A stretch of DNA of 64,000 nucleotides from assembly GCF_963675165.1 (NCBI RefSeq), contig NC_087386.1:4966169-5030168 (forward strand). Direction: 5' to 3'. The position numbers and the translations under genes are program-made. Below the pieces are notes generated by a model. The model searched no databases and was not told the DNA's origin. It worked only from the letters and a program-made list of their open reading frames with translations. This document shows positions 1-35,023 of this stretch, one piece after another. How positions within the stretch are numbered: the stretch's first letter is position 1; each line of letters begins with the position of its first letter. The DNA comes from Halichondria panicea. Lineage: Eukaryota; Porifera; Demospongiae; Suberitida; Halichondriidae.

Positions 1-131
1 ACTTGGAATTTCAAAGACATGTATATACTTATACAAGTAGTTTGTAAAATAATCTGTTCATATGTACACGTGGTTAACATCAAACTAATTAATAATACCA
101 AGTGACATAGTTACTATAAACCCACGGTTAC

Positions 132-194
132 CTTGCTCTCAGCCAGCTGTCGACACAGAATGATATTGACTACGTCCAAACAAGCTTCTAGCTC
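132..194 (-). other. VPS13: VPS13 copy A exon 15 (last exon in window)
   Basis: A 63-bp phase-0 exon flanked by CAG (195-197) and a GTAACC donor. It reads [20 protein letters not shown], matching the VPS13 segment just after the WSWKHIKEH motif. It continues in phase from the exon at 1293-1377. No further exon was recognised between 1 and 131. Confidence 0.8.
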
Positions 195-3100
195 CTGTTA
201 CACGAGATTAAAATAATGGTAGAAAAAGTGAACTGAATGTACTACAACGTTTTACTACTATTAAATTAAACATGAACTTTGCGAGTGCTAGCGGTGGCTT
301 CGCAGCAAAAACAAGATGATGACATCACGATCCTTACCAGATTGCACAAGTTAGATCGCAAATGTCAAAACTTCTGCTCATTCACAAAACATTGAAGTAA
401 TATACAGTATACAACATACATGTATCCTCATGCACATAGTATTTGAAAACTGTTGTGCTCAATGCCAGCAGAAAACGAGACATGAGTTAGACCATAGATA
501 GAGTAGAAGGGGATTGGAAACAGAAGTACCCTCGAAGTACCATCCGTGTATCTCTGCGGTTTTAATCGAGGCTTACTTTTAACATGAAGGCTAAACATGA
601 ATAAGTCATGAGAATTGTTTTACTGTCTGTAAAAAGTCCAAGAGCAGTTCTGCTGCTAAACATCAACTTTCATCTCATACTTGAGGCCACAGAACACTAT
701 TTAGTTAACACAGCCTTAGCAGGAACACAAGCATGAAAAAGCGCTCTGTGTACCTCTAGCTACTTCACAATCAAGATTATATTTTCTTCCTTTCCAATTG
801 ATACCTACCATCAGGGGGCATGTGATTCAGTAACGGGGGTAGCTCTGAGATGTATGCATAGGACACAATAATTTTCCCGGGATTTTGCAGGAGATACAAG
901 GATGCATGTTTCTGCAGAGCCACTACGTAGACTTCATTGTAAAAACATCACGTGAATCACTTCTGTTTCCAATCCCTCTTCTACTCTATCTATGGTTAGA
1001 CAAAAGTCGTCACACCTCACACAAATGACACCCACAACAGTAATATACATTTTTGGCAGGTTAATAAATAGAGGAATCCTACCAACAGTGGCTGTAAATA
1101 AGGAGATGGACAGTTTGAAAACACATGCTATGGATATTTTAGTTACATAAATAGAGGGGGACCAGTTTATAATGCTAGACACATTCTACTGCATGTACTC
1201 ACAAAACCACTAAGATCATGAGAGAATGCCCTCCATTATAGGTGGAGAAGGCAGAGCTCTCCACATGCAGAGTAGGCCATTGCTAAACTTACATCTAGTT
1301 CCCCCTGGAGCGTATCTGAGACCTTCTTAGCAAGCAGCTTCTCAACATACCGCTCTCTGTACCTCTTGCATCTTGCCCTGAGGGAGTGCATGAGAGGGGT
1401 GCAAGTTCACTATACATCTGAACACATGCACAGTCATACGAAGAACGTTAATTTACAGGTGCTCAAAGCTGCTATATAGCCAATAACTATAATAATTACA
1501 CATAAGCTTCAATGTATATTATAAGGCCACAGATTGACTACATGTATACAACTACATGTACAAGGAATTAGTATACTGCAGGGTTTCATTTAGGGGAATT
1601 GGCTGAATTGACTTCCATATAATTTATATGTGTGTTACTGACTTCCATAGTGGTTTCTCGCAAAACATTCTAGTAATACGGTAGATCTATGAACAGGAAA
1701 TAGGTCAGAAGCAATTGAGACGAAACCAGGAGGTCAAGAGTATGAAACCAGGAGGTCAAGAGTATGAAACCAGGAGGTCAAGAGTATGAAACCAGGAGGT
1801 CAAGAGTATGAAACCAGGAGGTCAAGAGTATGAAACCAGGAGGTCAAGAGTATGAAACCAGGAGGTCAAGAGTATGAAACCAGGAGGTCAAGAGTATGAA
1901 ACCATGCAAACACATGAACACAACACATAATTAGAAACACATATTGGCTTATGTCCTTCGGCAACCATGAGGGCGGGTAGTATGAAACCAAACACATGAA
2001 CCCCCAACCCATAATTATATTGGTCTTGTTTCCGTCTGCAACCATATGAAACCAAACACATGAACCTCCAATCCATATATTGGCTTGTTTCCTTCGGCAA
2101 CCAAGAGGGCGGGGAGTATGAAACCAAACACATGAACCTCCCAACACAAATATTGTGGGTTTTTTCCTCCTGGGGAGTATACCCACATCACTGTTAGCTC
2201 CATTGCCTGAATTTGTATTTGTACCAACACCTTGTATCAGCTGAGAGGCTTACATGTACTATAGCACAAAATTATGACATCCAGTACTATAACCAAACTT
2301 CACTAGCAAATTAACACCTAAGCATAATTTTTATATGAACAAAAGTCTAGATGATTCACAGCTGAAACTCCTCCCACCTATAGGTGTCATGTAGCCCTCC
2401 TCCCCATACTAGTCATAATTATAGGGAGAGTATACAAATGGATAGGTTTAATCGTCCTGTCATGTGCTAATTTTCACCTAAAAATTAAACTTGGTGGAAT
2501 AATTATAGATATATCAGACGTCCGATATACCTTATACATATATCAGATGTCGGATACACATATCTGACATAGGATATGATATCTGCTCAGAAAACTGGCT
2601 GTGGACAGTGTAAATTGTAATATTGACAGTGACTCATATGGCACCCCATATATAGGTACCTATATACCTATATATAATTATGTCTGGTGTTTGCACCATT
2701 GTTTAGTCTACTACCTTCCATTGTCTGCATGTGTTCAGGCCCTTGTTCCCCCTATAGCCAAGGCTACGACTACACACAGATACTATAGTCTCCATGGACA
2801 GGAAATTAGTCAGAGGCAGGTATTCCCCAACCAGGTCAAGGGTATAAAAAGGCTAACTTGCAACTCTGAAACTATACACATGCACAATCTGCTAAGGCTA
2901 AGCAAAAATGGCAAAATTAGCTGAGAGGATACAGTGCATAATACAGCAAGGGAGAGATGACAGAGTGAATGTGTACCCAGTGACCTCCTCTCTGAACCCT
3001 AACCCTAACCCTCCTTCCGTACAACAGTCGAAGGCGGCGACGCCAGTCTACTCACCTCCCTACAACTGGATCTGTCACTTGAACATCGACGACACATACG

Positions 3101-6100
3101 GTGCAACTGGCTTCAAGATCAATCTACCTCATGTCAACAACTACACCGTTGTTGTCACCGCTGCACACAACTTATGGATAGATGGTTCCTATGCCAATAA
3201 AGTCAAGTTGAAATATCCAGGAAAGGCTGAAGTAGTTGAAGCAATTGCAAAAAATTTGTATGTACCACCGGAATATAAGAACCCAAACGATACTCCGAAC
3301 TACGATTATGGCCTGATATTCTACCTGGATCATGAAAGCTGCAACGATGGATTCGGTTGGACGACTGAAATAAAAGACGAAGAACTACTTGGACGTATTG
3401 TAACCATTTGCGGGTATCCAGCCGATAAGCAGAACAGAAGTATGTGGATCACAGGAACAGATATAACGAAGGTTCACCCACTTCGTATCGAATACTTGAC
3501 CGACACAATGCCGGGGCAGAGTGGGAGCCCGATATACACCTGGTACCATGGCTGCCTGACAGTCGTTGGTGTTCACACTTACGGAGATGCCGAATACAAC
3601 TTTGGTCGACGCTTTGGGTTGCAAATGATCTCTAGATTCGTGAAAAAAATGAACTGCTTGAAAGCACTTCAATCAGTGGCATTTCCAAACGTTTATCTTC
3701 GTTGTTATAAAAGAAAAGAGTCGTTTGATGGGGAAAAAATCAATTGCCAATACCTTGAACCAGGTGATTTAGGGAAATTTTATATCTACCCCGTGTACAT
3801 GCCACCGTCCTCAGCCCACGCCGATATCCTTCCAAAATTTGTCATTGAAAGTGCAAATACTGAAGACTTGTTCCTTCGTCTGGAGATCGAGGGAATGACG
3901 CAAAATGATAAATACGTTGGGGGTGGCAAAGTGTATAGCAGTGTGTGCGAGGATAGCAAGGTCAATGAGACAGAAATGTTTTATCTGAGAAAAGAAACAA
4001 GAGAAGACGCTGTTTACTCATTTATAAGCGTGGCATACCCGACTTGCCGCATACGAGTAGACGGCAGAAATGTGAGAAGGAATGAGCCTAATGGTTCTGG
4101 AAAAGTCAACTGCCAGTACTACGCTCTAAACAAGAGCACAGGGCCGTATTTTGAAGGTTTGAAAAAAACTTACAAAAGTGCTGAAGATGAGGAACGGATT
4201 CGGATTCAGATGTTGATTAAGTGACTGTATACTACATGTACATGTGTATTCAGTATGATACTGTAGTTATACAACTTCTGTGTAGTATGCTGAAAGCATA
4301 TAAGCTTTGATATTGTCTATGTAATAATTATAGTTAGACACTGTTTAGGAAGTTTCTACATGATTTAGAAGCCCAAAGGGCTGGTTGTAGTATCCCGAAC
4401 GTAGTGAGGGTTCTACTAGCCCTGAGGATTTCTAAATCATGTGGAAACTATAGCAACCACGAGTCTCTAGCCAATCAGATTTAAATGTTCTAATCTAGTC
4501 TTTGTTACATGATTTTCTAAGTGAAGTATATGATTTTTTAAGTAAGTACATTTCTAAAAATGTCTGCTGATACCATTGTGTAGGTGAATGAATAAGCTAT
4601 AACATATCCAAAATGTTTCCATGAAAACACAAGGTAGTGGGTTTGTGGTGATTAATAAAACAGTAAACAATTGTTATAGTTGGTAATCGGTTAGGGAGAG
4701 AAAAGGCCAAAAGTTTCCGGCTAAGGTTTGGAACTCTGTCACAACATCTATAGATAGTTTGGCTATCTTATGAAAGGTTAGATGTTGCTTAAATATCTAC
4801 ACATCCTCCGCAGTGCTACTTTTTAGTGCCGTTTCGGTTAGGGAGAGATATGAAGAAGATCTCACGGCTAAGGTCCAAAAATTACACCGAGTAAGCTTGA
4901 ATAATAAAATAAATTGCCTAACTTTTGATAATGTGCAGAAATACTCTAAATCTTGAGATACATTTAAGTACAACTACTCCACCTATTTTTGTATTCTACT
5001 CTCTAGACTGGATGCACTGTAATCGAGGTTCCGGATAATCGAGGTTCTACTGTAGTAGGGATCCAGAGGAGAGTATTGTCTGATGGCCCATTCACAGAAT
5101 ACTGACATTGTTGTAGCTAAGGATACCCACAGATGTGCATGAGGAAGTTCATATAAGACCATTGGAGCGTTAATTCATGATGTGACTTTTGAATACTCCT
5201 TGTTCTTGCTATAGGACTAGAGTAATTGAACAATGAATCATAATGATTAGCAAATGATTAGCAATCAATAGTTTATAGTTACTTGTGCAATAAGGGACTC
5301 ATATCATAATAAGCACTGGCAAGGTAAATACGTAGCACTCGGCTTCGCTTCGTGCAAACAAGAGTATAATCAAGGGAGTATAAAAGAAGAGAGGGCATGC
5401 AACTCCACTATCAGCTAGTACACGTAGCTAGCAGAGTTCAAACGTGGGCGGAGGAATGTGTGCATTTGCATGAAGTGCTAAAAATATTTTTAGCATTTCA
5501 TGCACAGTCATACACATTCATCCGCCCACGTTTGAACTCTGCTCATTGGAGTTGCATGCCCTCTCTTCTTTTATACGCCCTTGGTATAATATTATCATTT
5601 GTAGCCTTGATAGTTTTGTGCATGGGAATACTTTAGTCACTTTGTGCCTTCATACAAATTATCGTTTGTGTAAATAATTGTGAATATTTGTAAACAATTG
5701 CTAATTAGTGGGGGTGGTTAGTTGCTAGGTTACCATGAAGGTGTCATGGCACCCCTGGGGTCTAGGTTACCTGTAGGAAATAGTTACAAGTGATTTCAAT
5801 CTATGGTTCACGTGAGACCGAGAAAAACATGCAAATATTCCGTTAAATTATAATAGCTGCATAGCAAAAGGTTAAATTAAATCAGGATTTCAAACAGTTA
5901 GTGTTTATATTCAGAAATTTATGTTTTTTGTTATTTACTTATTTATGTCTAGCACAGTAGTTGTAGGGGAGTACCTCGATACGAGTTAAAATACCCTTGT
6001 GCAATAAGTTTGTAGCAAAAAAGGGATGGGTGTATGTATTTTCAAGTTGCACGAGGGTACAGTGTGCAAATAATAGATTCACACATTCTGTGTAGCCTAC

Positions 6101-9100
6101 TGCGGAGGAAGAGAGTAGTACCTGCATGCAAAACTGTATCCCCATTTATTTGACAGTGCCGGAATTTGAATGCATACAAAAGTTTTTCTCCTAGCCAGGT
6201 TACCTCCCACCTCCCTATAATAATTATACGCAAATGCTAAAGTCTATTTGCATTGAGTTTGGCCCCGGAAGTTATGTGGTCAATTATGGCTTCATTTATG
6301 CTTTATGTGGTGGACAAGTGCCTGGAACTTCTACATGGAAAATGCTAACTTTTAACTGGTTGGAGGCTCTACAGCATATACGTACTAGATAGAAACGCTT
6401 TTTAACAAGGAATCCAATGGTATATGAAACTTTGAATTTCAGTGAAGGATGACAAAGTTATGACAACTTTGTGAAGGTCAAACTCAACATAAATATAGAC
6501 TTTAGTAAAGATCTATGAACAGAAAATGGGTCAGAAGCGATAGAGGCGAAACCAAGAGGTCAAGAGTATGAAACCATGCAAACACATGAACCCCCAACCA
6601 ATATATTGCCAATTTGGTCTTCTTTCCGTCTGCAACCAAGAGGGCGGGGGGTATGAAACCAAATACATGAAACTCCCCTAACCCATATATTGGTCTTCTT
6701 TCCGTCTGCAACTAAGAGTTCAAGAGTATGAAACCAAACACATGAACCTCCCAACACAAATATTGCTGGTTTTCTTTCCTCCTGAGAAGTATACCCACAT
6801 TTCTGTGGGTCACTATAATCAGCTCCATGACTGAATTTGTATACTAACACCTTCTATCAGCTGAGAGGCTTACATGTACTATAGCACTAAATTACGACAT
6901 TGAGCAAAATTTCACTAGCGACACCTAAGTATACATGAACAAAAGTCTAGATGATTCGCAGCTGAAACTTCTCCCACCTATACGAGTCACGTAGCCCCCC
7001 CCCCATACTAGTAATATAGTGAGAGTATATACAAATGGATGAGTCAATAATCGTCCTGTCCATGCATGTGCTAATTTTCACCTAATAATTAAACTTGGGG
7101 GAAAATGAACTAATATAGATATCAGACGTCGAATATGATATCTGCTCAGAAAACTTGCTGTGGACAGTGTAAATTGTAATCATATGGCACCCCATAGGTA
7201 CCTATACTATGTCTGGCGTTTGCACTATTAATTCCTTCCATTTTCTGCATGTGTTCAAGGCCTTTTTTCCCCCTAGCCAAGGTTACCCACTGATACATGA
7301 CTACCGACTATACACAGATACTATAGTCTTCATGGACAGGAAATTAGTCAGAGGCAGGTATTCCCCAACCAGGTCAGGGTATAAAAAGGCTAACTTGCAA
7401 CTCTGAAACTATACACATGCACAATCTGCTAAGGCTAAGCAAAAATGGCAGAATTAGCTGAGAAGATACAGCAAGGGAGAGATGACAGGGTGAAGGTGGA
7501 CCCAATGACCTTCCCTCCCTACAACTGGATCTGTCACTTGAACATCGACGACAAGTACGGTGCAACTGGCTTCAAGATCAATCTACCTCATGTCAACAAC
7601 TACACTGTTGTTGTCACCGCTGCACACAACTTATGGATAGATAATTCCTATCCCAACAAAGTCACGTTGAAATATCCAGGAAAGGATGAAGTAATTGAAG
7701 CAATTGCAGAAAATTTTTATATACCAAAGGAATATGACAACCCAGACGATACTCCGAACTACGATTATGGTCTGATATTCTATCTGGATCATGAAAGCTG
7801 CAACGATGGATTCGGTTGGACGACTGAAATAAAAGACGAAGAACTACTTGGACGTATTGTAACCATTTGCGGGTATCCAGGCGATAAACAGATCAGAAGT
7901 ATGTGGATCACAGGAACAGATATAACGAAGGTTCACCCACTTCGTATCGAATACTTGACCGATACATGGGCGGGGCAGAGTGGGAGCCCGATATACACCT
8001 GGTACCATGGCTACTGGACAGTCGTTGGTGTTCACACTTACGGAGGTGATGAATACAACTTTGGTCGACGCTTTGGGTTGCAAATGATCTCTAGATTCGT
8101 GAAAAAAATGAACTGCTTGAAAGCACTTCAATCAGTGGCATATCCAGACGCTTATCTTCGTTGTTATAAAAGAAAAGAGTCGTTTGATGGGGAAAAAATC
8201 AATTGCCAATACCTTGAACCAGGTGATTTAGGGAAATTTTATATCTACCCCGTGTATATGCCACCGTCCTTAGCCCACGCCGATATCCTTCCAAAATTTG
8301 TCATTGAAAGTGCAAATACTGAAGACTTGTTCCTTCGTCTGGAGATCGAGGGAATGACACAAAATGATAAATACGTTGGGGGTGGCAAAGTGTATAGCAG
8401 TGTGTGCGAGGATAGCAAGGTCAATGAGACAGAAATGTTTTATCTGAGAAAAGAAACAAGAGAAGACGCTGTTTACTCATTTATAAGCGTGGCATACCCG
8501 ACTTGCCGCATACGAGTAGATGGCAGAAATGTGAGAAGGAATGAGCCTAATGGTTCTGGAAAAGTCAACTGCCAGTACTACGCTCTAAACAAGAGCACAA
8601 AAAAGAGCACAGGGCCGTATTTTGAAGGTTTGAAAAAAGCTTACAGAAGTGCTAAAGATGAGGAACGGATTCAGATGTTGATTAAGTGACTGTATACTAC
8701 ATGTACATGTGTACATAGGTATGATACTGTAGTTATACAACTTCTGTGTAGTATGCTGAAAGCATATAATTATGTTTTTATTGCTTATAATTATAATCGT
8801 AATTTAACGAGCTGACACTAGCTATTACATGTACGCACAACAACACAAGCGTTGATTGTCTGCAGTGACGTAAGTGCCAGTGAGGATTATAACAGTCTGT
8901 CATCGGTCAAAAACCGACCAAATGGCTCAAATGACAGACCCACCATCAGCTTGAGCGGACACTATTGACGGACCAAATATGCTGAGCTGGCTAATCTAAA
9001 GAGCATGCGCACCATATAGAATATCAATTAATCTGCCACGTGTAAGAAAAGTTTAGCCAGTTATTAGTAAGGCTACTGGTACTACTGTAGCTTTTTTAGT

Positions 9101-12100
9101 GCTAGCTAGTACAAGAAGATAGTGACTACCTTCAAGCAGTGGCACTCTCAGATCTCTTTAAAGTGAATGTTGAATGACTTATTGAACTACAATAATATTA
9201 TTTTTTTGATAAGCCCAAAAAATCGATCAGCGACACAACTCGATGGTGTAGTACAGAGCTAGAAATTGAACACAATGAAAATTTTAGACCATTGGATTAA
9301 CAAACGTTTCTTACCGTTGTAATTTTTGAGTTACATGCTGACCTAGCATATAAAGTCAATGACCGATCATTTTGCAGCATGGTCTGACAAATGTCAGCTA
9401 GCAGAAAAAAATTTATAATCCTCACTGAGTGCTAAATTAGAGTACCGTATAGTGCGTATATTTGGCAAATGAAGCAATTGAAGTTTGGCAAGCCTCATCT
9501 TTATTCGACAAAATAATGGTCAAAATACGTGCCATACGGTATACAGTAGAACCTCGATTATCCGGACACCTTGGTTCCAGAAGCAGGCCGGATAAGTGAA
9601 TATGCCGGATAATCAAATAGATAAACCACGCCTTGATCCACCCACTTTATTGATGAACAGCAGTGCCACATGGTTGTCTGCGCATGCGCAAAAGAAAAGC
9701 AGGCATGTCTCCATGGTAAGAGCTGCAACGCGCATGCGCATTTTAGGGACACACCCATTTTCTGAATTATGCAATCTGATTAAAAAGAAAACTGCCAAGC
9801 CGGATAATCGAGGTTCCGGATAATCGAGGGCCGGATAATCGAGGTTCTACTGTACTAAAATAATTAATACAAACCCATTAAAAATTCAATGGGGACACCG
9901 TCTTTTTTTGCACAGTAACTGTATGAGTACTCGACATTAGCCAATTCCAAAACATTGTCAGTAGCAATACGGACTGTGTACAGTAGAACCTTGATTATCC
10001 AGACACCTTGGTTCTAGAACCAGGCCAGATAACTAAATATGCCGGAAAATCGAATGGATAAAGCACACCTTGATCCACCCACTTAATTGGTGCACGTGGG
10101 CGTCTGCGCATGTGCAGAAAATAAGCATTCCTGTCTCTATGGTAACAGTTGTAATGCTCATGCGCATATAAGAGACACGACCATTTTCTGATTAGTTGAG
10201 TTTTGACCCTATCATAGAGAAAATTGCCAAGCCGGATAATCGAGATTCTACTGTAGTAGGATCCAGAGGAGAGTATTATCTGATTGCCCATTCACAGAAT
10301 ACCGACATTGCCTTGTACTCAGGTACATTAAGGACTGGGACCAGCAATTATTGTTGATTCGCGAAAACGAAGCTCCGCCCACAATTTGTACTATCAGTAA
10401 AATGGAGTTTTGCTGCTCTAATCTTTAGCTCAAATTCCGGAGCGTAAAACCTTAGTTTAAGTGTTTACTTTTTAGTGCAGTAGTTAGTTCAAAGCTATAT
10501 ACAGGCACTACCGTTAGCGCCTAACAGTGGGATCAGCTAAAGGTGAGATTTTCTAAATAAAGTACTTTTTCAGCTTAATATTTTGCATGTAAAGGCTAAT
10601 AACTTACTTTTCATTGATCTCACTGTTAGGCGCTAACGGTAGTGCCTAGCTTTGAGTAGCTTTGCTGTAGCTTTGAACTAACTACTGCACTAAAAAGTAA
10701 ACACTTAAACTAAGGTTTTACGCTCCGGAATTTGAGCTAAAGATTAGAGCAGCAAAACTCCATTTTTACTGCACAATTGATAGTAAAAATCGTGGGCGGA
10801 GCTTCGTTTTCGCTGAATCAACAATAATTGCTGGTCCCAGTCCTTAATGTACCTGAGTAGTTAAGGGTACCCACAGATGTGCATGAGGAAGTTCATATAA
10901 GACCATTGGAGCGTTAATTCGAAAGCTCCTTGTAGAAATTGACAGGAGTGCATGAATAGTGAACAATGATTAGCAATATAATGGTTACTTGTGCAATAAG
11001 GCACTCATATCATAAGCACTGGCAAGGTAAATAGCACTCGGCTTCGCCTCGTGCAATTACATTGCTTGTTACACTTGTGCTATTAATCCTATATTATCTT
11101 AACCAACAATTAACGACGGTTGCCACACCTGTGCTCTTTGATGTGTTTCCATGACCACATCCTAGTCCTCCTCTTGACGTCCTCCTCCAACACGGCAGAA
11201 ATGGCGTACCTCCACCACGCCCTCAGGTCATCACTCACACCCCCGAGGGGCTTATACTTGAGGTACTTTTGGTTGATAGACATTCTATCAAATGACTCAA
11301 CCAGACTCATAACGTTACGATACTGCAAGAGACAAGAAATGATGCAACTAAATACATATAAGTATACATGTAACATTTATTGCTGGTAATAATATGAATC
11401 ACAGACTAACTGACCAGTGGGATAAGTCTATGCTAGTTGCTGTGTTATTATATAACTCGAGGGAACTATAACCGTAGATACTGAATGCACATTATAATCA
11501 TTACAGGGAACTATAGCTCATAGTTTCCTGTTAAACACTCTCAAGTGGGATCAGAGATTGACATGCATAAAAACAAGGCTTGAATCTGCAACAGTATCGT
11601 AGCAAAACATACAGTAAGCAGGGAAGTGTTTAATATAGAGGGCGGCTTACACTCGAAGAGCTACATGTAGCTTACCTGCTGTTTTCCTAGAGAGATGGCA
11701 ATGTGCTCTAGCACCACATTGACTAGTGCCTGAGGGATGGCCTCGTCCACCCCTGGCTTCATGGTCAGCTGCAACTTGGCCTTGGCACTGGTGGGACGCA
11801 GCACTACAGGGGGTAATGGAGGGGCAGCACAGAATTGGTGATTTGTAAAAATTCTCTTAATGGAAATTGTTGCTCTAGGATCAAAGTTGAAGTAGGGCTG
11901 TGATTATAAGGCAATTGAAAGCTATGTCTAACATCATCATCAGAGGTTCTATATAGTTAAACACAGTGTCTACGATACACACACACTTACGGAATTGCAT
12001 GTCCGATGATGTGTCATGTGACCTGGCAATCCGACTCTTAAGTGTTTCCTGGATTGCGAAATAATAGTTTTTTTAATTTATGGGACGCTCTAAATTAGTT

Positions 12101-15100
12101 TTCAAAACGACTCTAAATTGTGGGCACCTGAGGCACCTAACGGTCGTCAAAGAACAGCTGTTTCATTCCTACGAATCTGAATCCTTACAAGGTACAGTGA
12201 CTCACCGCCCAGTTGCTAGGCAACTTCCCGTCCAAGAGAAGACGAGCATCTGTGTTCCAGTAAAGGGACAAACAACTCATGTGCACAAGCTGTGGGGGGA
12301 CAATACTCGTTCTAGTATTATATTCTTGTACACGTTAAACTCTTGTAAAGTTCTACATCCTCTGAACATGATAATAATAATTTTATGCGTAAGAAAGCTC
12401 TGGTATTAATTTTGTGGTAAAATGGGAGTAATAATCAAGCGTGAGACGTGTTTTATGAAATGTACGGGCACAAGCGCGAATTATCACGACGACCCCTTTA
12501 CCAAATTATCTCTCTAGGCTACGGCGACCGTGTAATAAAAATGAAAGGGACGTACTGTATAACTTTTATTACACGCTTGTAAACTTGATGATGTGATACA
12601 AAAAGAACACAGTACCTGAATCACAAGCTCAGTAGTGACTTAGGCCCGAGGGCCGCAGAAGGAAACCACGGTGGTGTTACCGTGGAACCATGGTGGTATT
12701 ACCAAGGAGACCATGGTAATAATCACAAGCCAACACTCACTGTACCTTATAGATAAGCTGCGAGACAGGGTCGACATCCTGACCTCCAATCACATAGTTA
12801 CTATCTGTGCTCTGTTGTGAGGGGAAAATTCATAATCATGATGACTATCTCAATCCTCCATGGTCTTTAAAGTACATGTAATAGCTACCTCAAGCTGGAG
12901 CATAGCTAGACTAGCTGACTAGATGGACATGGCTATATAGCTAGAATTAGCTTGCCTAATTAATGGTCTATTACACGAGAAAGGACACATAATTCCATTA
13001 ATTATTGAAAAGCAACAGGTTTGGGGAAGTGTTCATTATAACACCACACCATTAAGCAGCTCACCTGGACAACCAGACTGTCCAGCGTAACGCCCACACT
13101 GAACGGATGGGAGGGGTCAGTCACCTAGGGTACAGAGAAATTATGTGAATGCGTATACATACATGTAAGGAAGCAAGACCAAACGCTTACCCCATCCTCA
13201 AACGTTACATGAATGTTTCTGACGGTCACCTATATTGTGTGTGTGAGTGTGTTTGTGGGTGTAGGTGTGAGAGTGTTGTGAGTGTGTGTGGGTGTGGGTG
13301 TGTGGGTGTGGGTGTGGGTGTGCGTAGGAGAATACAATGAGTTTCAGATGGTGTTACACAATATCTAGGTGCAAAAAATAAAGGTGAAAAAAAGCAAATG
13401 TAGGCAAACATTGTAAGCTGCACTACCTTGACCTCATTTAAGTCAGCACTTAGACGTCACCTCATGTAGGAACACCAAGTTGTACAATTCATTCGTTCTT
13501 GCTACATATTTATTACACAGGGAACATGCTATACATAGACTGATAAAAAATGGAGCTGTCACATACGTACATGTACTATTCTCCATCACTAGTACAAACA
13601 CTTCTCACTTGAACATTCCTGATGATCTGTGTCACCAGCTTCTCCACAAGGCCGGGGGCTTGGTTCTTCTTGTCTGCATGGTAACAATACACATTACACG
13701 CACTAATTACTAATACTATGTATCTGTACAATTAAGTGTTCAGCATTTTGAAAAAAAATTACCAATACCAGTACAACTACTCACTATCTCAAAAGAACTT
13801 TATATTAATTAGGCAAGCCGCTCACCATTCCCCAACCATTTCTATATAGCAGATGGACACTTCGATCTACCAAAAGTAATATTTTGCTACTTTACTCAAA
13901 CCTACATGTATAGTATACTGCCAACACAGTGAGGAGAAATATCACTGGTAACGAAAGTTATAAAAATGCAATGCCAAAAAACGGGCGCATGTACAATTTC
14001 TGGCATTTTATGAACAGTACCTTTTGTTTCCAAGGTCTTTTTTCTAGCGTCTTCGATTTTCTTCAACTGTCTGTCTTTGTTGTCCTTCTTCTCCCGAGCA
14101 TCTCTCTCTGCATCGTACTTGGCAGCTGCATGGGTGAAGCAAACAGTTGGCTGTTATAATTGTTGAATGTGAATAGTGGAGCCAAATGTGGGAAGGAATC
14201 TTAAATGCAAATTTGGGACAATTTCTCAGTTACAAATACATGATGTAATAGTTATTATGTTACCCCATTTCAAAGGTATTTCCTTAAACAAACTGTTTTA
14301 TCTGCCCATGTCACAGAATTGGTAAGGTCACAACACTCTGTATCTACAGTCGAGTGTTGTACTCAACGAAGTACAGGGAATTAACAAACCATGCATGCAA
14401 TATACAAGACACCCATCAGTTGTTACAGTAGTACACACATAATGTAAGTAGTACGTTGTACGCAATGTTACGAGCACGATCTACTAATTAAGGCCCACCA
14501 TCCCTCAGCTCTAGATATTATAGCAATTGATGCAACCATTTACCAGAGGCAGGCCCAGCTACCACAAAGAGGCCATCCACCTCAGCCACTACTGGAGCAC
14601 CGTACAAGTTAGACCAGGGGATCTTCAAGCGAAGTTTGTCTGCAATAGAAATAATATTAAGCATCAACTACACCACAACTGTGTGCATTTAGGAAAGTGC
14701 CAACATACAATACAAATCAGTACTTACCTAAATGTCCTCCAAATATCCTCACAGGCAAGTTGAGCTCATCCTGTAGATTATATAATTAATGTTTACTCAA
14801 TAATTGCTCTACACACGCACCAGTGCATTTTCCTTGAGGTCAAGTCTTTCCAAAAGCACATCACCTGAAATCAGCAACAGTTCTTTAACAGTAACAACCA
14901 TTAATAGTGTCAACCATTAATAGTATACACTAGGTATAATTTTGAGCGAAGCGAGGCTCTAATCGGGTCACGTTGAGATTTTGGAGAGAGAAAAAAGGAT
15001 GACGATAGACACTGCTGATCAATCGAGCTAGTGGCTCTGGTTGCTGCAGACTGTAACGGTTCTACTTCAAAGTTGGAGGACGTGTTAGTGATTGTACTAG

Positions 15101-16095: not shown

Positions 16096-16494
16096 GCTTC
16101 AGCCCTAGCTAGCTAGCTTAGAGCTTTTATAGTGATCTCGTAGCTGCAATTCACATGCACAATCCCGTGCAGTTTTCAGACTCGATTGGCTGAAAGGTCA
16201 AAGTTCCAACAAAACGACCACCAGGAGACTTTACTTTATCGCCTTATCAGATCATAGTCACGATCCCCTTTCTCAATTGAGAGCGGCCTGGAATCGAGGC
16301 TATATATACATGTACATGTTAGGTCAATCAGCTAATGAACTCTTGCAGGAGAATCTTCATACACTCCTGACTCTTGGTACTGGTATTATGAAGAGAATAG
16401 TCATGTACATATAAACATGATCACAATGATAGCACACATATTAGCGCTAATCAGCTAGCTATGTCCATGTCCTTTTTAGTTCAGAGTTCTTGGT

Positions 16495-16788
<294 letters not shown>

Positions 16789-18060: not shown

Positions 18061-18251
18061 AAACGAGCCCTTATCAAAATCCTCGGTCCCTTCAGAGATG
18101 CTGTCAGCGTGGAGGAAGTTGTTCTTCACCTTCAAGCGGCAGCAATGAAGGCGGCCTGACTGAGAGCACTGAGGGGTAACACTAGAACAGGGGCAAACAC
18201 GGTGATGTCTAGACCAACACGACTAGAGCTCTGCTCTCTTAGTGCCTCGGC
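18061..18251 (-). pseudogene. VPS13: Frameshifted VPS13 mid-region exon
   Basis: From the acceptor at 18252 the frame reads AEALREQSSSRVGLDITVFA then PVLVLPLSALSQAAF and reaches TGA. The expected continuation RLKVKNNFLHADSISEG is in another frame up to the donor at 18060. In VPS13 proteins these two blocks are contiguous, linked by a D-L-G-type turn, which is what is missing here. Confidence 0.75.
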
Positions 18252-19994: not shown

Positions 19995-20177
19995 GTGTAG
20001 CAGGTGGTCTAACACCTCTTATTAGGTGGCGTGTAGCAGGTGGTCTAACACCTCTTATTAGTTTAGCAGTGCAAGCAGCCATTTACGGAACAGATGCTTG
20101 CACTGCTAAACTAATAAGAGGTGTTAGACCACCTGCTACACGCCACCTAATAAGAGGTGTTAGACCACCTGCTACAC
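19995..20177. repeat. Perfect palindrome, 82-bp arms, 19-nt spacer
   Basis: 19995-20076 is the exact reverse complement of 20096-20177, with 20077-20095 as loop. Each arm itself contains two direct copies of a ~39-bp unit (gtgttagaccacctgctaca core). Confidence 0.95.
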
Positions 20178-20459
20178 GCCACCTAGTCATACCCAGTGGT
20201 CCAAACGTGCAAGTAGTATTTGGTGATGCTACACTTCATTACTGCTAAACTAAACAGATGCTTGCACTGCTAAACTAATAAGAGGTGTTAGACCACCTGC
20301 TACACGCCACCTAATAAGAGGTGTTAGACCACCTGCTACACGCCACCTAGTCATACCCAGTGGTCCAAACGTGCAAGTAGTATTTGGTGATGCTACACTT
20401 CATTACCGTCAAGCCATTTACGGAACAGATGCTTGCACTGCTAAACTAATAAGAGGTGT
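20089..20459 (+). repeat. 164-bp direct repeats with an unidentified peptide-coding frame
   Basis: 20089-20242 recurs at 20253-20406, and a third partial copy is at 20415-20459. On the plus strand the unit reads through as VIPSGPNVQVVFGDATLHY, then (R)QAIYGTDACTAKLIRGVRPP and ATRHL, about 45 residues. The frame is open without an ATG from 20254 until a TGA just inside the protease 3 leader. I do not recognise the peptide; it may be a scrap of a transposon or host protein. Confidence 0.75.
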
Positions 20460-20515
20460 AATAACTTGCAACTCTGAAACTATACACATGCACAATCTGC
20501 TAAGGCTAAGCAAAA

Positions 20516-21754
20516 ATGGCAGAATTAGCTGAGAGGATACAGCAAGGGAGAGATGACAGGGTGAAGGTGTACCCAATGACCTCCCCTCCCTACAACTGGA
20601 TCTGTCACTTGAACATCGACGACAAGTACGGTGCAACTGGCTTCAAGATCAATCTACCTCATGTCAACAACTACACCGTTGTTGTCACCGCTGCACACAA
20701 CTTATGGATAGATAATTCCTATGCCAACAAAGTCAAGTTGAAATATCAAGGAAAGGATGAAGTAGTTGAAGCAATTGCAAAAAACTTGTATGTACCACCG
20801 GAATATAAGAACCCAAACGATACTCCAGACTACGATTATGGTCTGATATTCTACCTGGATCATGAAAGCTGCAACGATGGATTCGGTTGGACGACTGAAA
20901 TAAAAGACGAAGAACTACTTGGACGTATTGTAACCATTTGCGGGTATCCAGCCGATAAACAGAACAGAAGTATGTGGATCACAGGAACAGATATAACGAA
21001 GGTTCACCCACTTCGTATCGAATACTTGACCGACACAATGCCGGGGCAGAGTGGGAGCCCGATATACACCTGGTACCATGGCTACTGGACAGTCGTTGGT
21101 GTTCACACTTACGGAGATGCCGAATACAACTTTGGTCGATGCTTTGGGTTGCAAATGATCTCTAGATTTGTGAAAAAAATAAACTGCTTGAAAGCACTTC
21201 AATCAGTGGCATTTCCAGACGTTTATCTTCGTTGTTATAAAAGAAAAGAGTCGTTTGATGGGGAAAAAATCAATTGCCAATACCTTGAACCAGGTGATTT
21301 AGGGAAATTTTATATCTACCCCGTGTACATGCCACCGTCCTTAGCCCACGCTGATATCCTTCCCAAATTTGTCATTGAAAGTGCAAATACTGAAGACTTG
21401 TTCTTTCGTCTGGAGATCGAGGGAATGACGCAAAATGATAAATACGTTGGGGGTGCCAAAGTGTATAGCAGTGTGTGCGAGGATAGCAAGGTCAATGAGA
21501 CAGAAATGTTTTATCTGAGAAAAGAAACAAGAGAAGACGCTGTTTACTCATTTATAAGCGTGGCATACCCGACTTGCCGCATACGAGTAGACGGCAGAAA
21601 TGTGAGAAGGAATGAGCCTAATGGTTCTGGAAAAGTCAACTGCCAGTACTACGCTCTAAACAAGAGCACAGGGCCGTATTTTGAAGGTTTGAAAAAAACT
21701 TACAAAAGTGCTGAAGATGAGGAACGGATTCGGATTCAGATGTTGATTAAGTGA
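20516..21754 (+). CDS. S1B (V8-like) serine protease with C-terminal trefoil-like domain, paralog 3
   Basis: Intronless, 412 aa. Triad His61, Asp107 and Ser179 intact; GVHTYG (His197) follows the serine. The C-terminal half has the [12 protein letters not shown] and VNCQYYALN repeats. Nearest to paralog 1 in sequence and 3' flank, but without its N-terminal insertion. The coding start, MAELAERIQQG, keeps the ancestral leader for only ~50 bp; further upstream the TATA-bearing module is replaced by palindromic repeats. The protein is open but its expression is doubtful. Arg-to-Cys (GRCFG) and Met-to-Ile changes occur in conserved positions after the protease core. Confidence 0.82.
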   Translation: MAELAERIQQGRDDRVKVYPMTSPPYNWICHLNIDDKYGATGFKINLPHVNNYTVVVTAAHNLWIDNSYANKVKLKYQGKDEVVEAIAKNLYVPPEYKNPNDTPDYDYGLIFYLDHESCNDGFGWTTEIKDEELLGRIVTICGYPADKQNRSMWITGTDITKVHPLRIEYLTDTMPGQSGSPIYTWYHGYWTVVGVHTYGDAEYNFGRCFGLQMISRFVKKINCLKALQSVAFPDVYLRCYKRKESFDGEKINCQYLEPGDLGKFYIYPVYMPPSLAHADILPKFVIESANTEDLFFRLEIEGMTQNDKYVGGAKVYSSVCEDSKVNETEMFYLRKETREDAVYSFISVAYPTCRIRVDGRNVRRNEPNGSGKVNCQYYALNKSTGPYFEGLKKTYKSAEDEERIRIQMLIK

Positions 21755-21887
21755 CTGTATACTACATGTACATTTGTATTCAGTATGATACTGTAGTTAT
21801 ACCACTTCTGTGTAGTATGCTGAAAGCATAATATTATAAGCTTTGATATTGTCTATGTAATAATTATAGTTAGACACTGTTTAGGAA

Positions 21888-21984
21888 GTTTCTACATGAT
21901 TTAGAAGCCCAAAGGGCTGGTTGTAGTATCCCGAACGTAGTGAGGATTCTACTAGCCCTGAGGACTTCTAAATCATGTGGAAAC
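21888..21984. mobile_element. Small foldback element, second copy
   Basis: Same arms and core as 4352-4448; downstream of protease 3. Confidence 0.65.
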
Positions 21985-22894
21985 TATAGCAACCATGAGT
22001 CTCTAGCCAATCAGATTTAAATGTTCTAATCTAGTCTTTGTTACATGATTTTCTAAGTGAAGTATATGATTTTCTAAGTAAGTACATTTCTAAAAATGTC
22101 TGCTGATACCATTGTGTAGGTGAATGAATAAGCTACAACATATCCAAAATGTTTCCATGAAAACACAAGGTAGTGGGTTTGTGGTGATTAATAAAACAGT
22201 AAACAATTGTTATAGTTGGTAATCAGTTAGGGAGAGAAAAGGCCAAAAGTTTCCGGCTAAGGTTTGGAACTCTGTCACAACATCTATAGATAGTTTGGCT
22301 ATCTTATGAAAGGTTAGATGTTGCTTAAATATATACACATCCTCCGCAGTGCTACTTTTTAGTGCCGTTTCGGTTAGGGAGAGATATGAAGAAGATCTCA
22401 CGGCTAAGGTCCAAAAATTACACCGAGTAAGCTTGAATAAATTGCTTAACTTTTGATAATGTGCAGAAATACTCTAAATCTTGAGATACATTTAAGTACA
22501 ACTATACTCCACCTATTTTTGTATTCTACTCTCTAGACTGGATGCACTGTAATCGAGGTTCCGGATAATCGAGGTTCTACTGTAGTAGGGATCCAGAGGA
22601 GAGTATTATCTGATGGCCCATTCACAGAATACTGACATTGCCTTGTAGCTATAAGGATACCCATAGATGTGCATGAGGAAGTTCATATAAGACCATTGGA
22701 GCATTCAAATCATGATGTGACTTTTGAATACTCCTTGTTCTTGCTATAGGACTAGAGTAATTGAACAATGAATCATAATGATTAGCAATCAATAGTTTAT
22801 AGTTACTTGTGCAATAAGGGACTCATATCATAATAAGCACTGGCAAGGTAAATACGTAGCACTCGGCTTCGCTTCGTGCAAACAAGAGTATAAT

Positions 22895-23108
22895 CAAGGG
22901 AGTATAAAAGAAGAGAGGGCATGCAACTCCACTATCAGCTAGTACACGTAGCTAGCAGAGTTCAAACGTGGGCGGAGGAATGTGTGCATTTGCATGAAGT
23001 GCTAAAAATATTTTTAGCATTTCATGCACAGTCATACACATTCATCCGCCCACGTTTGAACTCTGCTCATTGGAGTTGCATGCCCTCTCTTCTTTTATAC
23101 GCCCTTGG
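22895..23108. mobile_element. Long imperfect hairpin element, second copy
   Basis: Copy of 5371-5584 with the same arms and centre; I saw no differences, consistent with recent block duplication. Confidence 0.8.
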
Positions 23109-24905
23109 TATAATATTATCATTTGTAGCCTTGATAGTTTTGTGCATGGGAATACTTTAGTCACTTTGTGCCTTCATACAAATTATCGTTTGTGTAAATA
23201 ATTGTGAATATTTGTAAACAATTGCTAATTAGTGGGGGTGGTTAGTTGCTAGGTTACCATGAAGGTGTCATGGCACCCCTGGGGTCTAGGTTACCTGTAG
23301 GAAATAGTTACAAGTGATTTCAATCTATGGTTCACGTGAGACCGAGAAAAACATGCAAATATTCCGTTAAATTATAATAGCTGCATAGCAAAAGGTTAAA
23401 TTAAATCAGGATTTCAAACAGTTAGTGTTTATATTCAGAAATTTATGTTTTTTGTTATTTACTTATTTATGTCTAGCACAGTAGTTGTAGGGGAGTACCT
23501 CGATACGAGTTAAAATACCCTTGTGCAATAAGTTTGTAGCAAAAAAGGGATGGGTGTATGTATTTTCAAGTTGCACGAGGGTACAGTGTGCAAATAATAG
23601 ATTCACACATTCTGTGTAGCCTACTGCGGAGGAAGAGAGTAGTACCTGCATGCAAAACTGTATCCCCATTTATTTGACAGTGCCGGAATTTGAATGCATA
23701 TAAAAGTTTTTCTCCTAGCCAGGTTACCTCCCACCTCCCTATAATAACTATACGCAAATGCTAAAGTCTATTTGCATTGAGTTTGGCCCTGGAAGTTATG
23801 TGGTCAATTATGGCTTCATTTATGCTTTATGTGGTGGACAAGTGCCTGGAACTTCTACATGGAAAATGCTAACTTTTAACTGGTTGGAGGCTCTACAGCA
23901 TATACGTACTAGATAGAAACGCTTTTTAACAAGGAATCCAATGGTATATGAAACTTTGAATTTCAGTGAAGGATGACAAAGTTATGACAACTTTGTGAAG
24001 GTCAAACTCAACATAAATATAGACTTTAGTAAAGATCTATGAACAGAAAATGGGTCAGAAGCGATAGAGGCGAAACCAAGAGGTCAAGAGTATGAAACCA
24101 TGCAAACACATGAACCCCCAACCAATATATTGCCAATTTGGTCTTCTTTCCGTCTGCAACCAAGAGGGCGGGGGGTATGAAACCAAATACATGAAACTCC
24201 CCTAACCCATATATTGGTCTTCTTTCCGTCTGCAACTAAGAATTCAAGAATATGAAACCAAACACATGAACCTCCCAACACAAATATTGCTGGTTTTCTT
24301 TCCTCCTGGGAAGTATACCCACATTTCTGTGGGTCACTATAATCAGCTCCATGACTGAATTTGTATACCAACACCTTCTATCAGCTGAGAGGCTTACATG
24401 TACTATAGCACTAAATTACGACATTGAGCAAAATTTCACTAGCGACACCTAAGTATACATGAACAAAAGTCTAGATGATTCACAGCTGAAACTTCTCCCA
24501 CCTATACGAGTCACGTAGCCCCCCCCCCCATACTAGTAATATAGTGAGAGTATATACAAATGGATGAGTCAATAATCGTCCTGTCCATGCATGTGCTAAT
24601 TTTCACCTAATAATTAAACTTGGGGGAAAATGAACTAATATAGATATCAGACGTCGAATATGATATCTGCTCAGAAAACTTGCTGTGGACAGTGTAAATT
24701 GTAATCATACGGCACCCCATAGGTACCTATACTATGTCTGGTGTTTGCACTATTAATTCCTTCCATTTTCTGCATGTGTTCAAGGCCTTTTTTCCCCCTA
24801 GCCAAGGTTACCCACTGATACACGACTACCGACTATACACAGATACTACAGTCTTCATGGACAGGAAATTAGTCAGAGGCAGGTATTCCCCAACCAGGTC
24901 AAGGG

Positions 24906-24912
24906 TATAAAA
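24906..24912 (+). promoter_or_regulatory. TATA box of protease gene 4
   Basis: TATAAAA about 60 bp before the position of the lost ancestral ATG and 81 bp before the used ATG at 24987. Confidence 0.7.
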
Positions 24913-24986
24913 AGGCTAACTTGCAACTCTGAAACTATACACATGCACAATCTGCTAAGGCTAAGCAAAAACGGCATAATTAGCTG

Positions 24987-26201
24987 ATGGGGATACAGCA
25001 AGGGAGAGATGACAGGGTGAAGTTGTACCCAATGACCTCCCCTCCCTACAACTGGATCTGTCACTTGAACATCGACAACAAGTACGGTGCAACTGGCTTC
25101 AAGATCAATCTACCGCATGTCAACAACTACACCGTTGTTGTCACCGCTGCACACAACTTATGGATAGATGGTTCCTATGCCAACAAAGTCAAGTTGAAAT
25201 ATCCAAGAAAGGCTGAAGTAGTTGAAGCAATTGCAAAAAACTTGTATGTACCACCGGAATATAAAAACCCAGACGATACTCCAGACTACGATTATGGCCT
25301 GATATTCTATCTGGATCATGAAAGCTGCAACGATGGATTCGGTTGGACGACTGAAATAAAAGACGAAGAACTACTTGGACGTATTGTGACCATTTGCGGG
25401 TATACAGGCGATAAACAGAACAGAAGTATGTGGATCACAGGAACAGAAATAACGAAGGTCCACCCATTTCGTATCGAATACTTGACCGACACAAAGGAAG
25501 GGCAGAGTGGGAGCCCGATATACACCTGGTACCATGGCTACTGGACAGTCGTTGGTGTTCACACTTACGGAGCTGTCGAATACAACTTTGGTCGACGCTT
25601 TGGCTTGCAAATGATCTCTAGATTCGTTAAAAAAATGAACTGCCTGAAAGCACTTCAATCCGTGGCATTTCCAGACGTTTATCTTCGTTGTTATAAAAGA
25701 AAAGAGTCGTTTGATGGGGAAAAAATCAATTGCCAATACCTTAAACCAGGTGATTTAGGGAAATTTTATATCTACCCCGTGTACATGCCACCGTCCTTAG
25801 CCCACGTCGATATCCTTCCAAAATGTGTCATTGAAAGTGCAAATACTGAAGACTTGTTCCTTCATCTGGAGAGCGAGGGAATGACGCAAAATGATAAATA
25901 CGTTGGGGGTGGCAAAGTGTATAGCAGTGTGTGCGAGGATAGCAAGGTCAATGAGACAGAAATGTTTTATCTGAGAAAAGAAACAAGAGAAGACGCTGTT
26001 TACTCATTCATAAGCGTGGCATACCCGACTTGCCGCATACGAGTAGACGGCAGAAATGTGAGAAATGAGCCTAATGGTTCTGGAAAAGTCAACTGCCAGT
26101 ACTACGCTCTAAACAAGAGCACAGGGCCGTATTTTGAAGGTTTGGAAACAACTTACAAAAGTGCTGAAGATGAGGAACGGATTCAGATGTTGATTAAGTG
26201 A
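24987..26201 (+). CDS. S1B (V8-like) serine protease with C-terminal trefoil-like domain, paralog 4 (new start)
   Basis: Intronless, 404 aa. Triad His56, Asp102 and Ser174 intact. The ancestral start is destroyed: the ATG of the other paralogs is ACG here, and the frame then meets TAA within three codons. A small change a few bases downstream created a new ATG at 24987 that restores the frame as [11 protein letters not shown], so only the extreme N-terminus is altered. The serine loop reads DTKEGQSG. One of two consecutive Arg codons in NVRRNEP is missing. The 3' flank is composite: first like paralogs 1/3, then like paralog 2. Possibly functional; translation depends on the new start. Confidence 0.78.
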   Translation: MGIQQGRDDRVKLYPMTSPPYNWICHLNIDNKYGATGFKINLPHVNNYTVVVTAAHNLWIDGSYANKVKLKYPRKAEVVEAIAKNLYVPPEYKNPDDTPDYDYGLIFYLDHESCNDGFGWTTEIKDEELLGRIVTICGYTGDKQNRSMWITGTEITKVHPFRIEYLTDTKEGQSGSPIYTWYHGYWTVVGVHTYGAVEYNFGRRFGLQMISRFVKKMNCLKALQSVAFPDVYLRCYKRKESFDGEKINCQYLKPGDLGKFYIYPVYMPPSLAHVDILPKCVIESANTEDLFLHLESEGMTQNDKYVGGGKVYSSVCEDSKVNETEMFYLRKETREDAVYSFISVAYPTCRIRVDGRNVRNEPNGSGKVNCQYYALNKSTGPYFEGLETTYKSAEDEERIQMLIK

Positions 26202-26331
26202 CTGTATACTACATGTACATGTGTACGTAGTATGATACTGTAGTTATACAACTTCTGTGTAGTATGCTGAAAGCATATTATAAGCTTTGATATTCTCTAC
26301 GTAATAATTATAGTTAGACACTGTTTAGAAA

Positions 26332-26428
26332 GTTTCTACATGATTTAGAAGCCCAAAGGGCTGGTTGTAGTATCCCGAACGTAGTGAGGGTTCTACTAGC
26401 CCTGAGGACTTCTAAATCATGTGTAAAC
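26332..26428. mobile_element. Small foldback element, third copy
   Basis: Same element as 4352-4448, with one change in the right arm (gtgtaaac). Confidence 0.6.
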
Positions 26429-26759
26429 TATAGCAACCATAAGTCTCTAGCCAATCAGATTTAAATGTTCTAATCTAGTCTTTGTTACATGATTTTCTAA
26501 GTGAAGTACATGATTTTCTAAGTAAGTACATTTCTAAAAATGTCTGCTGATACCATTGTGTAGGTGAATGAATAAGCTACAACATATTACATGTGTATGC
26601 AGTATGATACTGTAGTTATACAACTTCTGTGTCGTATGCTGAAAGCATATAATTATTGCTTATATAATCGTAATTTAACGAGCTGACACTAGCTATTACA
26701 TGTACGCACGCACGTATAGCAACAACACAAGCGTTGATTGTCTGCAGTGACATAAGTGC

Positions 26760-27321: not shown

Positions 27322-27330
27322 AGTGCTAAA

Positions 27331-27951: not shown

Positions 27952-27994
<43 letters not shown>

Positions 27995-33601: not shown

Positions 33602-35023
<1,422 letters not shown>

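What the first reader, a model, noticed from the sequence alone, without database searches (positions are those of the whole stretch)
2908..26201. Family of V8-like protease/trefoil fusions nested antisense in a VPS13 intron
Four intronless paralogs each join an S1B-type protease core (His in TAAHN, Asp in YDYGL, Ser in GQSGSP, all intact) to a ~185-residue C-terminal domain with trefoil-like NCQY repeats. No signal peptide is visible, which is unusual because V8-type glutamyl endopeptidases are mostly secreted bacterial enzymes. Intronless coding in an intron-rich genome, sequence near-identity and location inside a host gene's intron suggest recent arrival and local amplification. Transfer from bacteria or a role in intracellular defence are possibilities only.
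Basis: partly seen in the sequence, partly recalled or inferred. Interest (0 to 1): 0.78.

Follow-up and report, generated by a model that had tools for sequence, protein, structure and literature searches.

The report
Sponge V8-type protease fused to beta-trefoil
A sponge carries a small family of protein-cutting enzymes, each joined to a fold of the sugar-binding kind that otherwise turned up here on bacterial proteins; copies made by local duplication differ most sharply beside the cutting site, as if their targets were changing.

Summary
Four intact, intronless genes (2908-26201, + strand; 93-96% identical to the third) encode a protease of V8/glutamyl-endopeptidase type, without a visible leader, joined to a C-terminal domain modelled as a beta-trefoil (pLDDT 74.5; best Foldseek match CBM42). 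Two genes lie antisense in a 9.75-kb intron of a VPS13 gene; the other two lie beside a duplicated VPS13 5' fragment. A silicatein-like gene points to a demosponge. "Recent arrival" is not supported: a fifth intronless copy elsewhere is 47% identical (dS about 2); only the local 2x2 duplication is recent. Outside this genome the trefoil was found in bacteria, there also joined to Peptidase_C70 or MACPF domains; no bacterial V8-trefoil fusion was found. No animal collection was available, so transfer is untested. New here: of 404 aligned residues, only four show three states across the copies, two adjacent pairs beside the S1 pocket (191-192, 217-218; noticed first, tested after), and the coding sequences diverge more than the DNA between them. 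Best reading: a chimerolectin-like defence protease whose substrate preference is diversifying. Expression, activity and ligand are untested.

The parts
2908..4224 (+). gene 1: V8-like protease + beta-trefoil, 438 aa; carries an extra N-terminal insert of about 22 residues
7445..8689 (+). gene 2: same fusion, 414 aa
20516..21754 (+). gene 3: same fusion, 412 aa; its upstream DNA is replaced, no TATAAA in the 160 bases before the ATG
24987..26201 (+). gene 4: same fusion, 404 aa; the ATG used by genes 1-3 reads ACG, a later ATG opens the frame
21173..21751 (+). C-terminal beta-trefoil domain of gene 3 (gene 2's domain, 8102-8686, was the one modelled)
21032..21055 (+). gene 3 residues 173-180: Thr174 (position 190), variable pair 175-176 (191-192) and catalytic Ser179
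   Evidence: chymotrypsin numbering by counting from the Ser and His motifs, residue roles from passages of PMC5508998
21104..21121 (+). gene 3 residues 197-202: His197 (position 213) and variable pair 201-202 (217-218)
2843..2852 (+). TATAAAAAGG, 65 bases before the gene 1 ATG
7380..7389 (+). TATAAAAAGG, 65 bases before the gene 2 ATG
24906..24915 (+). TATAAAAAGG, 81 bases before the gene 4 ATG now in use
1378..11128 (-). VPS13 intron (9,751 bases by splice consensus) that holds genes 1 and 2 on the opposite strand; about 117 and 200 bases between the matching segments in two VPS13 paralogs of this genome
   Evidence: boundaries read by eye from the consensus
11129..11325 (-). VPS13 exon upstream of the intron, copy A (profile 297-361)
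1290..1377 (-). next VPS13 exon ([16 protein letters not shown]); similarity weak, 3' end not fixed
130..194 (-). following VPS13 exon ([21 protein letters not shown]), flanked by AG and GT
   Evidence: (E 0.022)
28908..29105 (-). duplicate of the 11129-11325 VPS13 exon, copy B; the two downstream exon motifs were not found after it
3051..16755 (.). duplicated unit, copy A (partner 20581-33863), in several pieces
20581..33863 (.). duplicated unit, copy B

Best explanation
Each gene makes a leaderless two-domain protein. An N-terminal chymotrypsin-fold protease of the V8/glutamyl-endopeptidase type (predicted to cut after Glu or related residues) is joined to a C-terminal AbfB/CBM42-like beta-trefoil, which I infer to be a binding module that holds the enzyme on a glycan or other ligand of its target. 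I infer that it works like a proteolytic chimerolectin: stored in the cytosol and acting on invaders or consumers, or on material inside the cell. Tandem and segmental duplication, with sequence exchange or selection, is diversifying its substrate preference. Shown: domain make-up, intact catalytic residues, absence of a hydrophobic leader, trefoil fold (model), duplication history, three-state sites only beside S1. Inferred: proteolytic activity, ligand binding, cytosolic storage, defence role.
For: Triad and S1 residues Thr190 and His213 (Thr174, His197 of gene 3) are conserved in 4 of 4 copies; the C2 paralog has Ser190 and His213 (residue roles from passages of PMC5508998). Closest solved sequences are glutamyl endopeptidases (1p3c, E 1.4e-6). 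Trefoil: AF2 pLDDT 74.5, pTM 0.76, 12 strands; Foldseek top hit CBM42 3kmv E 5.7e-6; VIA-align Z 16.2 (rmsd 1.7, 123 aligned) to a designed beta-trefoil and Z 15.4 (rmsd 2.9, 153 aligned) to the lectin-protease MOA. In bacteria this trefoil family is joined to Peptidase_C70 (4 of the 8 proteins scanned: L046, L053, L056, L058) and MACPF (1 of 8: L061). No leader: highest mean hydropathy of 11 residues in the first 40 is at most 0.89 in the five fusion proteins, against 2.50 and 3.03 in two relatives of the same genome. dN/dS 0.25-0.30 against the C2 paralog. Three-state sites: 4 of 404 ungapped columns, all at 175-176 and 201-202. Genes 2 and 4 differ at 5.10% against 0.86% in the intergenic DNA of the same duplicate (Fisher P 1.7e-16). 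TATA boxes in 3 of 4 copies. PMC6272156 (passages) describes fungal defence lectins without signal sequence kept in the cytoplasm, a trefoil-protease chimerolectin (MOA), and intron-poor defence genes with bacterial homologues.
Against: No expression, activity or ligand data. The window proteins fall below Pfam's AbfB cut-off, and sugar-binding residues were not examined. The S1-rim set was chosen after I had seen the variable residues, so its Fisher P (1.3e-5) is post hoc; with sites of two or more states there is no significant enrichment (P 0.24). Pairwise dN/dS among the four copies is below 1 overall (0.41-0.86) and at most 0.998 in the protease half (genes 2 and 3). Silent sites of genes 2 and 4 are also raised (dS 0.077), which positive selection alone does not explain; their 3' flank is raised too (3.19%). 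Gene 3 lacks the TATA box and gene 4 lost the ancestral ATG. The C2 paralog has Lys where the window copies have the oxyanion-hole Gly193. Residues 161-195 of the trefoil model have pLDDT near 50-60, and the top CBM42 Foldseek match has rmsd 8.9. Leaderless proteins can leave the cell by other routes, so the cytosol is an inference.
Confidence: 0.38

Rival explanations
1. An old, vertically inherited sponge or animal gene, made intronless by retroposition, that serves as an ordinary intracellular processing or food-protein-degrading protease; the local copies are dosage duplicates.
For: The C2 paralog is old (47% identity, dS about 2) and intronless. dN/dS against it is 0.25-0.30. Most differences between copies are two-state and scattered (47 of 51 variable columns). 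The window proteases are as close to the host's secreted C11 pair (27.5 and 27.6%) as to bacterial enzymes (24-29%).
Against: No intron-bearing relative and no other copy of this trefoil was found in the genome (5 of 5 matches at E <= 10 are the fusion genes, whose counts are lower bounds). The C11 pair has hydrophobic leaders and long N-terminal regions.
Confidence: 0.3
2. Transfer from bacteria of a ready-made fused gene, followed by amplification.
For: With the C2 paralog as query, the protease half has bacterial matches of E 7e-25 to 4e-21 at 37-39% identity; in one alignment it is 33-38% identical to six bacterial enzymes and 25-26% to the host's secreted pair. Trefoil half: 34 bacterial loci, best match of the C2 paralog E 1.7e-25 within those loci. 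Intronless; no other trefoil copy found in the host genome.
Against: No fused bacterial gene: none of the 34 trefoil loci gave a match over residues 20-150 of the query at E <= 0.01; no plasmid or phage record covered 80% of the query (0 of 12, 0 of 19, 0 of 5 matching records); in the four phylum samples (398, 386, 395, 396 genomes) no match spans both halves. The window copies are no closer to bacterial proteases than to the host's secreted pair. The tree puts the five sponge proteins in one clade (96/98) with weak placement among bacteria. No other animals could be sampled.
Confidence: 0.12
3. Two separate bacterial or ancient modules joined inside the sponge lineage (domain shuffling after one or two acquisitions).
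For: Each half has bacterial relatives without the other. The same trefoil is joined to unrelated domains in bacteria, so it is a mobile module.
Against: Negative evidence only; the sampled collections hold no animals, and how many marine symbiont genomes they hold was not examined.
Confidence: 0.15
4. Decaying duplicates with no function.
For: Gene 3 lost its promoter segment, gene 4 its first ATG; dN/dS between some copies is close to 1.
Against: All four frames are open with all catalytic residues kept; 3 of 4 keep the TATA box.
Confidence: 0.05

Closest known systems
Glutamyl endopeptidases, MEROPS S1B (V8, BIGEP 1p3c)
   Same: Triad, GYPxDK and G-x-SGS motifs, Thr/Ser190 and His213, DxR motif near the start; PDB match E 1.4e-6
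   Different: No hydrophobic leader or long propeptide; the chain starts about 2-15 residues before the DDR motif; C-terminal trefoil added
MOA-type fungal chimerolectins (trefoil + cysteine protease)
   Same: Beta-trefoil plus protease in one protein; fungal cytoplasmic defence lectins lack a signal sequence (PMC6272156 passages); VIA Z 15.4, rmsd 2.9, 153 aligned, for the trefoil
   Different: Serine, not cysteine, protease; opposite domain order; trefoil of AbfB rather than ricin-B type; sugar binding unknown here
Bacterial AbfB-like trefoil proteins (trefoil + Peptidase_C70; MACPF + trefoil)
   Same: Same trefoil family (tblastn of the window copy against the 34 loci, E down to 5e-12) joined to other domains
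   Different: Catalytic partner; host; none of those seen has a V8 protease
Lamassu LmuA and related defence proteases
   Same: Protease half matches the PADLOC LmuA profile, E 6.6e-9
   Different: Match covers profile 16-215 of 425 only; a eukaryote gene; PMC12799240 (abstract and passages) pairs the bacterial protease with a nuclease and finds cleavage after isoleucines in one system
CBM42 / AbfB domain (PF05270)
   Same: Fold; a bacterial relative of the domain passes the Pfam cut-off (26.1 against 22.8 bits)
   Different: Window proteins stay below the cut-off; not on a glycosidase

Membership tests
V8/glutamyl endopeptidase (S1B) | Catalytic His-Asp-Ser in chymotrypsin-fold motifs | tested here: met
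   4 of 4 copies and the C2 paralog
V8/glutamyl endopeptidase (S1B) | Sequence similarity to characterised members | tested here: met
   1p3c E 1.4e-6 and 8 further glutamyl endopeptidase or V8 sequences at E <= 1.3e-4; Pfam Trypsin_2 below its cut-off
V8/glutamyl endopeptidase (S1B) | S1 residues Thr/Ser190 and His213 | tested here: met
   alignment; roles from passages of PMC5508998
V8/glutamyl endopeptidase (S1B) | Secretion signal and propeptide, typical of the characterised bacterial enzymes (recalled) | tested here: not met
   hydropathy (no dedicated signal-peptide program was run); chain begins next to the DDR motif. Typical, not definitional, for the family
V8/glutamyl endopeptidase (S1B) | Cleavage after Glu | not testable with these tools
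   needs assay
Beta-trefoil | Pseudo-threefold fold of 12 strands | tested here: met
   pLDDT 74.5, residues 161-195 near 50-60
CBM42/AbfB | Passes the Pfam PF05270 gathering score | tested here: not met
   E 0.095 and 0.068, below cut-off
CBM42/AbfB | Carbohydrate binding | not testable with these tools
   none
Proteolytic chimerolectin | Lectin domain and protease in one chain | tested here: inconclusive
   fold and protease yes; sugar binding unknown
Proteolytic chimerolectin | No signal sequence (feature of the fungal cytoplasmic defence lectins) | tested here: met
   hydropathy only
Lamassu LmuA | Protease plus LmuA effector region | tested here: not met
   profile match covers 16-215 of 425 only
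Trefoil factor (TFF, P domain) | Short three-disulfide P domain (recalled) | tested here: not met
   the domain models as a 12-strand beta-trefoil; no P-domain hit in Pfam

The most novel reading that the evidence does not exclude
An animal has its own chimerolectin-protease: a leaderless V8-type serine protease guided by a trefoil module otherwise seen here on bacterial proteins, put together in or near the sponge lineage and now diversified at its substrate-reading residues by tandem copies nested in a VPS13 intron.
Probability: 0.3. Interest if true: 0.75.

Novelty: new variant of a known kind. Interest (0 to 1): 0.52.

Why it matters
Proteases guided by lectin modules are described as fungal defence proteins. 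An animal version with a serine protease and with variability focused on specificity positions would be a testable example of an innate effector in one of the earliest animal lineages, and would tie modules found on bacterial proteins to sponge biology.

Tried and rejected
AlphaFold on the full protein with only the four window copies failed (pLDDT 27) and was not used; so the protease half rests on sequence alone. Sequence search of the C-terminal domain in PDB gave nothing, and of its Embleya relative nothing convincing (best E 0.021, an unrelated enzyme; CBM42 at 0.63). The own-genome fascin gene is not a visible relative (hhalign probability 1.3 and 4.7). NCBIfam gave nothing useful. First scans of genome contigs and viral contigs with the whole family found no relative, nor did a viral scan with the trefoil; phage records gave only protease matches (5 records). 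L066 carries a region before its trefoil that looked to me like a PI-PLC-type domain, but Pfam gave no match, so it is not counted. A 'fully inside VPS13' reading for genes 3 and 4 was dropped. Gapped columns, including gene 1's insert, were left out of the 404-column count. Paper searches for AbfB with horizontal gene transfer and sponge, for sponge horizontal-transfer proteases, and for Trypsin_2 in sponge immunity returned 0 papers; searches joining trefoil, V8 or glutamyl endopeptidase and sponge or chimerolectin showed no paper on this fusion among the rows listed (15 of 77, 10 of 645, 10 of 14; listings only). Searches for this assembly by size found none, and sponge genome papers were seen as a listing only; the species was not identified. 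The chimerolectin review PMC12355970 (passages) has no hit for sponge or CBM42. The protease tree has 17 rows, no other animals, and long branches that meet; it was not used for origin. The site-pattern and divergence tests are descriptive. On rechecking, the odds of a ready-made bacterial transfer went from 0.15 to 0.12 and of the vertical rival from 0.27 to 0.30, because one search shows the window copies equally far from bacterial and from host secreted proteases.
Full report
What is there. Four open, intronless frames at 2908-4224, 7445-8689, 20516-21754 and 24987-26201 (+) encode proteins of 438, 414, 412 and 404 residues, 93-96% identical to the third copy. The only Pfam signals are below cut-off: Trypsin_2 in 4 of 4, plus weak AbfB and Peptidase_S39 matches in one copy each. 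By sequence the nearest solved structures are glutamyl endopeptidases (1p3c E 1.4e-6, followed by V8-type entries). His61, Asp107 and Ser179 of gene 3 carry the triad motifs, and Thr174 and His197 stand where glutamyl endopeptidases have Thr/Ser190 and His213 (roles from passages of PMC5508998).

The C-terminal domain. In the C2 paralog three repeats of about 50-70 residues align to one another better than every one of 1000 shuffles; in the 20516 copy only repeats 1 and 3 remain similar, because repeat 2 is worn. A tblastn search of plasmid records found a stand-alone three-repeat relative in Embleya (E 2e-11), which passes the Pfam AbfB cut-off. A scan with it and the C2 paralog found 34 bacterial loci, 29 of them actinobacterial. 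With 32 of these 34 domains (L063 and L065, partial, were left out) and the four window copies as alignment, AlphaFold gave pLDDT 74.5 and pTM 0.76 for the gene 2 domain. Foldseek ranks CBM42 first (E 5.7e-6, though with rmsd 8.9) and VIA-align gives Z 16.2 (rmsd 1.7, 123 aligned) to a designed beta-trefoil and 15.4 (rmsd 2.9, 153 aligned) to the lectin-protease MOA. So it is a beta-trefoil, not a TFF-type trefoil domain. Pfam shows that bacterial members carry Peptidase_C70 (4 of 8 scanned) or MACPF (1 of 8) on the same chain.

The genome. The window lies in a 131-Mb assembly. A gene with the motif CGASYAF, which I recall as the silicatein active site, marks a demosponge. Besides the four copies there is one full-length paralog on contig C2 (47% identity, one open frame) and two remote matches on C11 with hydrophobic leaders. 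The trefoil was found only in the five fusion genes (5 of 5 matches at E <= 10). dS to the C2 paralog is about 2 and dN/dS 0.25-0.30: the family is old and constrained, the local array young.

The VPS13 setting. VPS13_N exons lie on the - strand in two copies. In copy A the exon ending near 11129 is followed, across an intron of 9,751 bases, by exons near 1377 and 194. These two rest on weak similarity (E 1.6 and 0.022) plus splice consensus; colinear exons with E 2e-3 to 2e-7 continue left of the window. The same intron measures about 117 and 200 bases in two VPS13 paralogs. Genes 1 and 2 are inside this intron, antisense. In copy B the downstream exon motifs were not found, so genes 3 and 4 lie downstream of a fragment. 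TATAAAAAGG stands 65 bases before the ATG of genes 1 and 2 and upstream of gene 4; gene 3 lacks it.

Variation between copies. Of 404 ungapped residue columns 51 vary; only four have three states and these are residues 175-176 (MP, WA, MP, KE in genes 1-4) and 201-202 (DA, GD, DA, AV), next to Ser195 and just after His213. The enrichment test (P 1.3e-5) used a residue set chosen after seeing this; with sites of two or more states there is no significant enrichment (P 0.24). Between the two large duplicates the intergenic DNA differs at 0.86% (27 of 3136), while genes 2 and 4 differ at 5.10% (62 of 1215), their 3' flank at 3.19% (23 of 721), and genes 1 and 3 at 2.13% (25 of 1174). Silent sites are raised too, so exchange with another sequence or retention of old alleles is needed as well as, or in place of, selection.

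Relatives of the protease. The protease half matches the LmuA defence profile (E 6.6e-9). With the C2 paralog as query, matches at E <= 1e-5 occurred in 5 of 398, 2 of 386, 4 of 395 and 7 of 396 genomes of four bacterial phyla, seed genomes included, the best proteases at 37-39% identity; no match spans both halves. In one alignment the C2 paralog is 33-38% identical to six bacterial enzymes and 25-26% to the host's secreted pair, but gene 3 is 24-29% identical to the bacterial rows and 27.5-27.6% to the secreted pair. A 17-row tree places the five sponge proteins together (96/98), away from that pair, but does not settle origin.

Reading. The anatomy resembles fungal chimerolectins such as MOA: trefoil plus protease, with fungal defence lectins described as lacking a signal sequence and often introns, and having bacterial relatives (passages of PMC6272156). 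I therefore favour a lectin-guided defence protease, with an ordinary processing or digestive protease as main rival. Activity, ligand, location and expression are untested.

Noticed in passing
window 33602-35020 (-) and 16495-16785 (-): Six-unit intronless polyubiquitin frame, with a degenerate ubiquitin copy at the matching end of the other duplicate: the duplication seems to have reached into this gene.
   Followed up: partly
window 38145-38879, 43208-44071, 53225-54001 (-): Tandem array with at least three Frizzled-type cysteine-rich domain frames (Pfam Fz, 3 of 3 scanned), repeated at DNA level over about 36-57 kb. Neighbouring frames look to me like netrin-type domains, but the one tested had no Pfam match.
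   Followed up: partly
window 19995-20459: Repeats of 154-207 bases and an inverted repeat stand where genes 1, 2 and 4 have their promoter region.
   Followed up: partly
window 7460-9440 against 24987-27334: Genes 2 and 4 and their 3' flank are more diverged (5.1%, 3.2%) than the intergenic DNA of the same duplicate (0.86%); cause unknown.
   Followed up: partly
G000 contigs C3, C9, C10: VPS13_N matches at several loci besides the window, including two on C10 near 3.98 and 4.16 Mb.
   Followed up: partly
L006, L007 (contig C11): Two neighbouring leader-bearing V8-like proteases with long N-terminal regions, distant relatives of the window family.
   Followed up: partly
L061:1502-3001: Bacteroidota protein with a MACPF domain followed by the same trefoil.
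   Followed up: no
L066:22-1812, L070:811-1986: Pseudomonadota-sample proteins with the trefoil beside regions that match no Pfam family at E <= 0.01.
   Followed up: no
window 35331-35723 (+): Tektin-like frame, below the Pfam cut-off.
   Followed up: no
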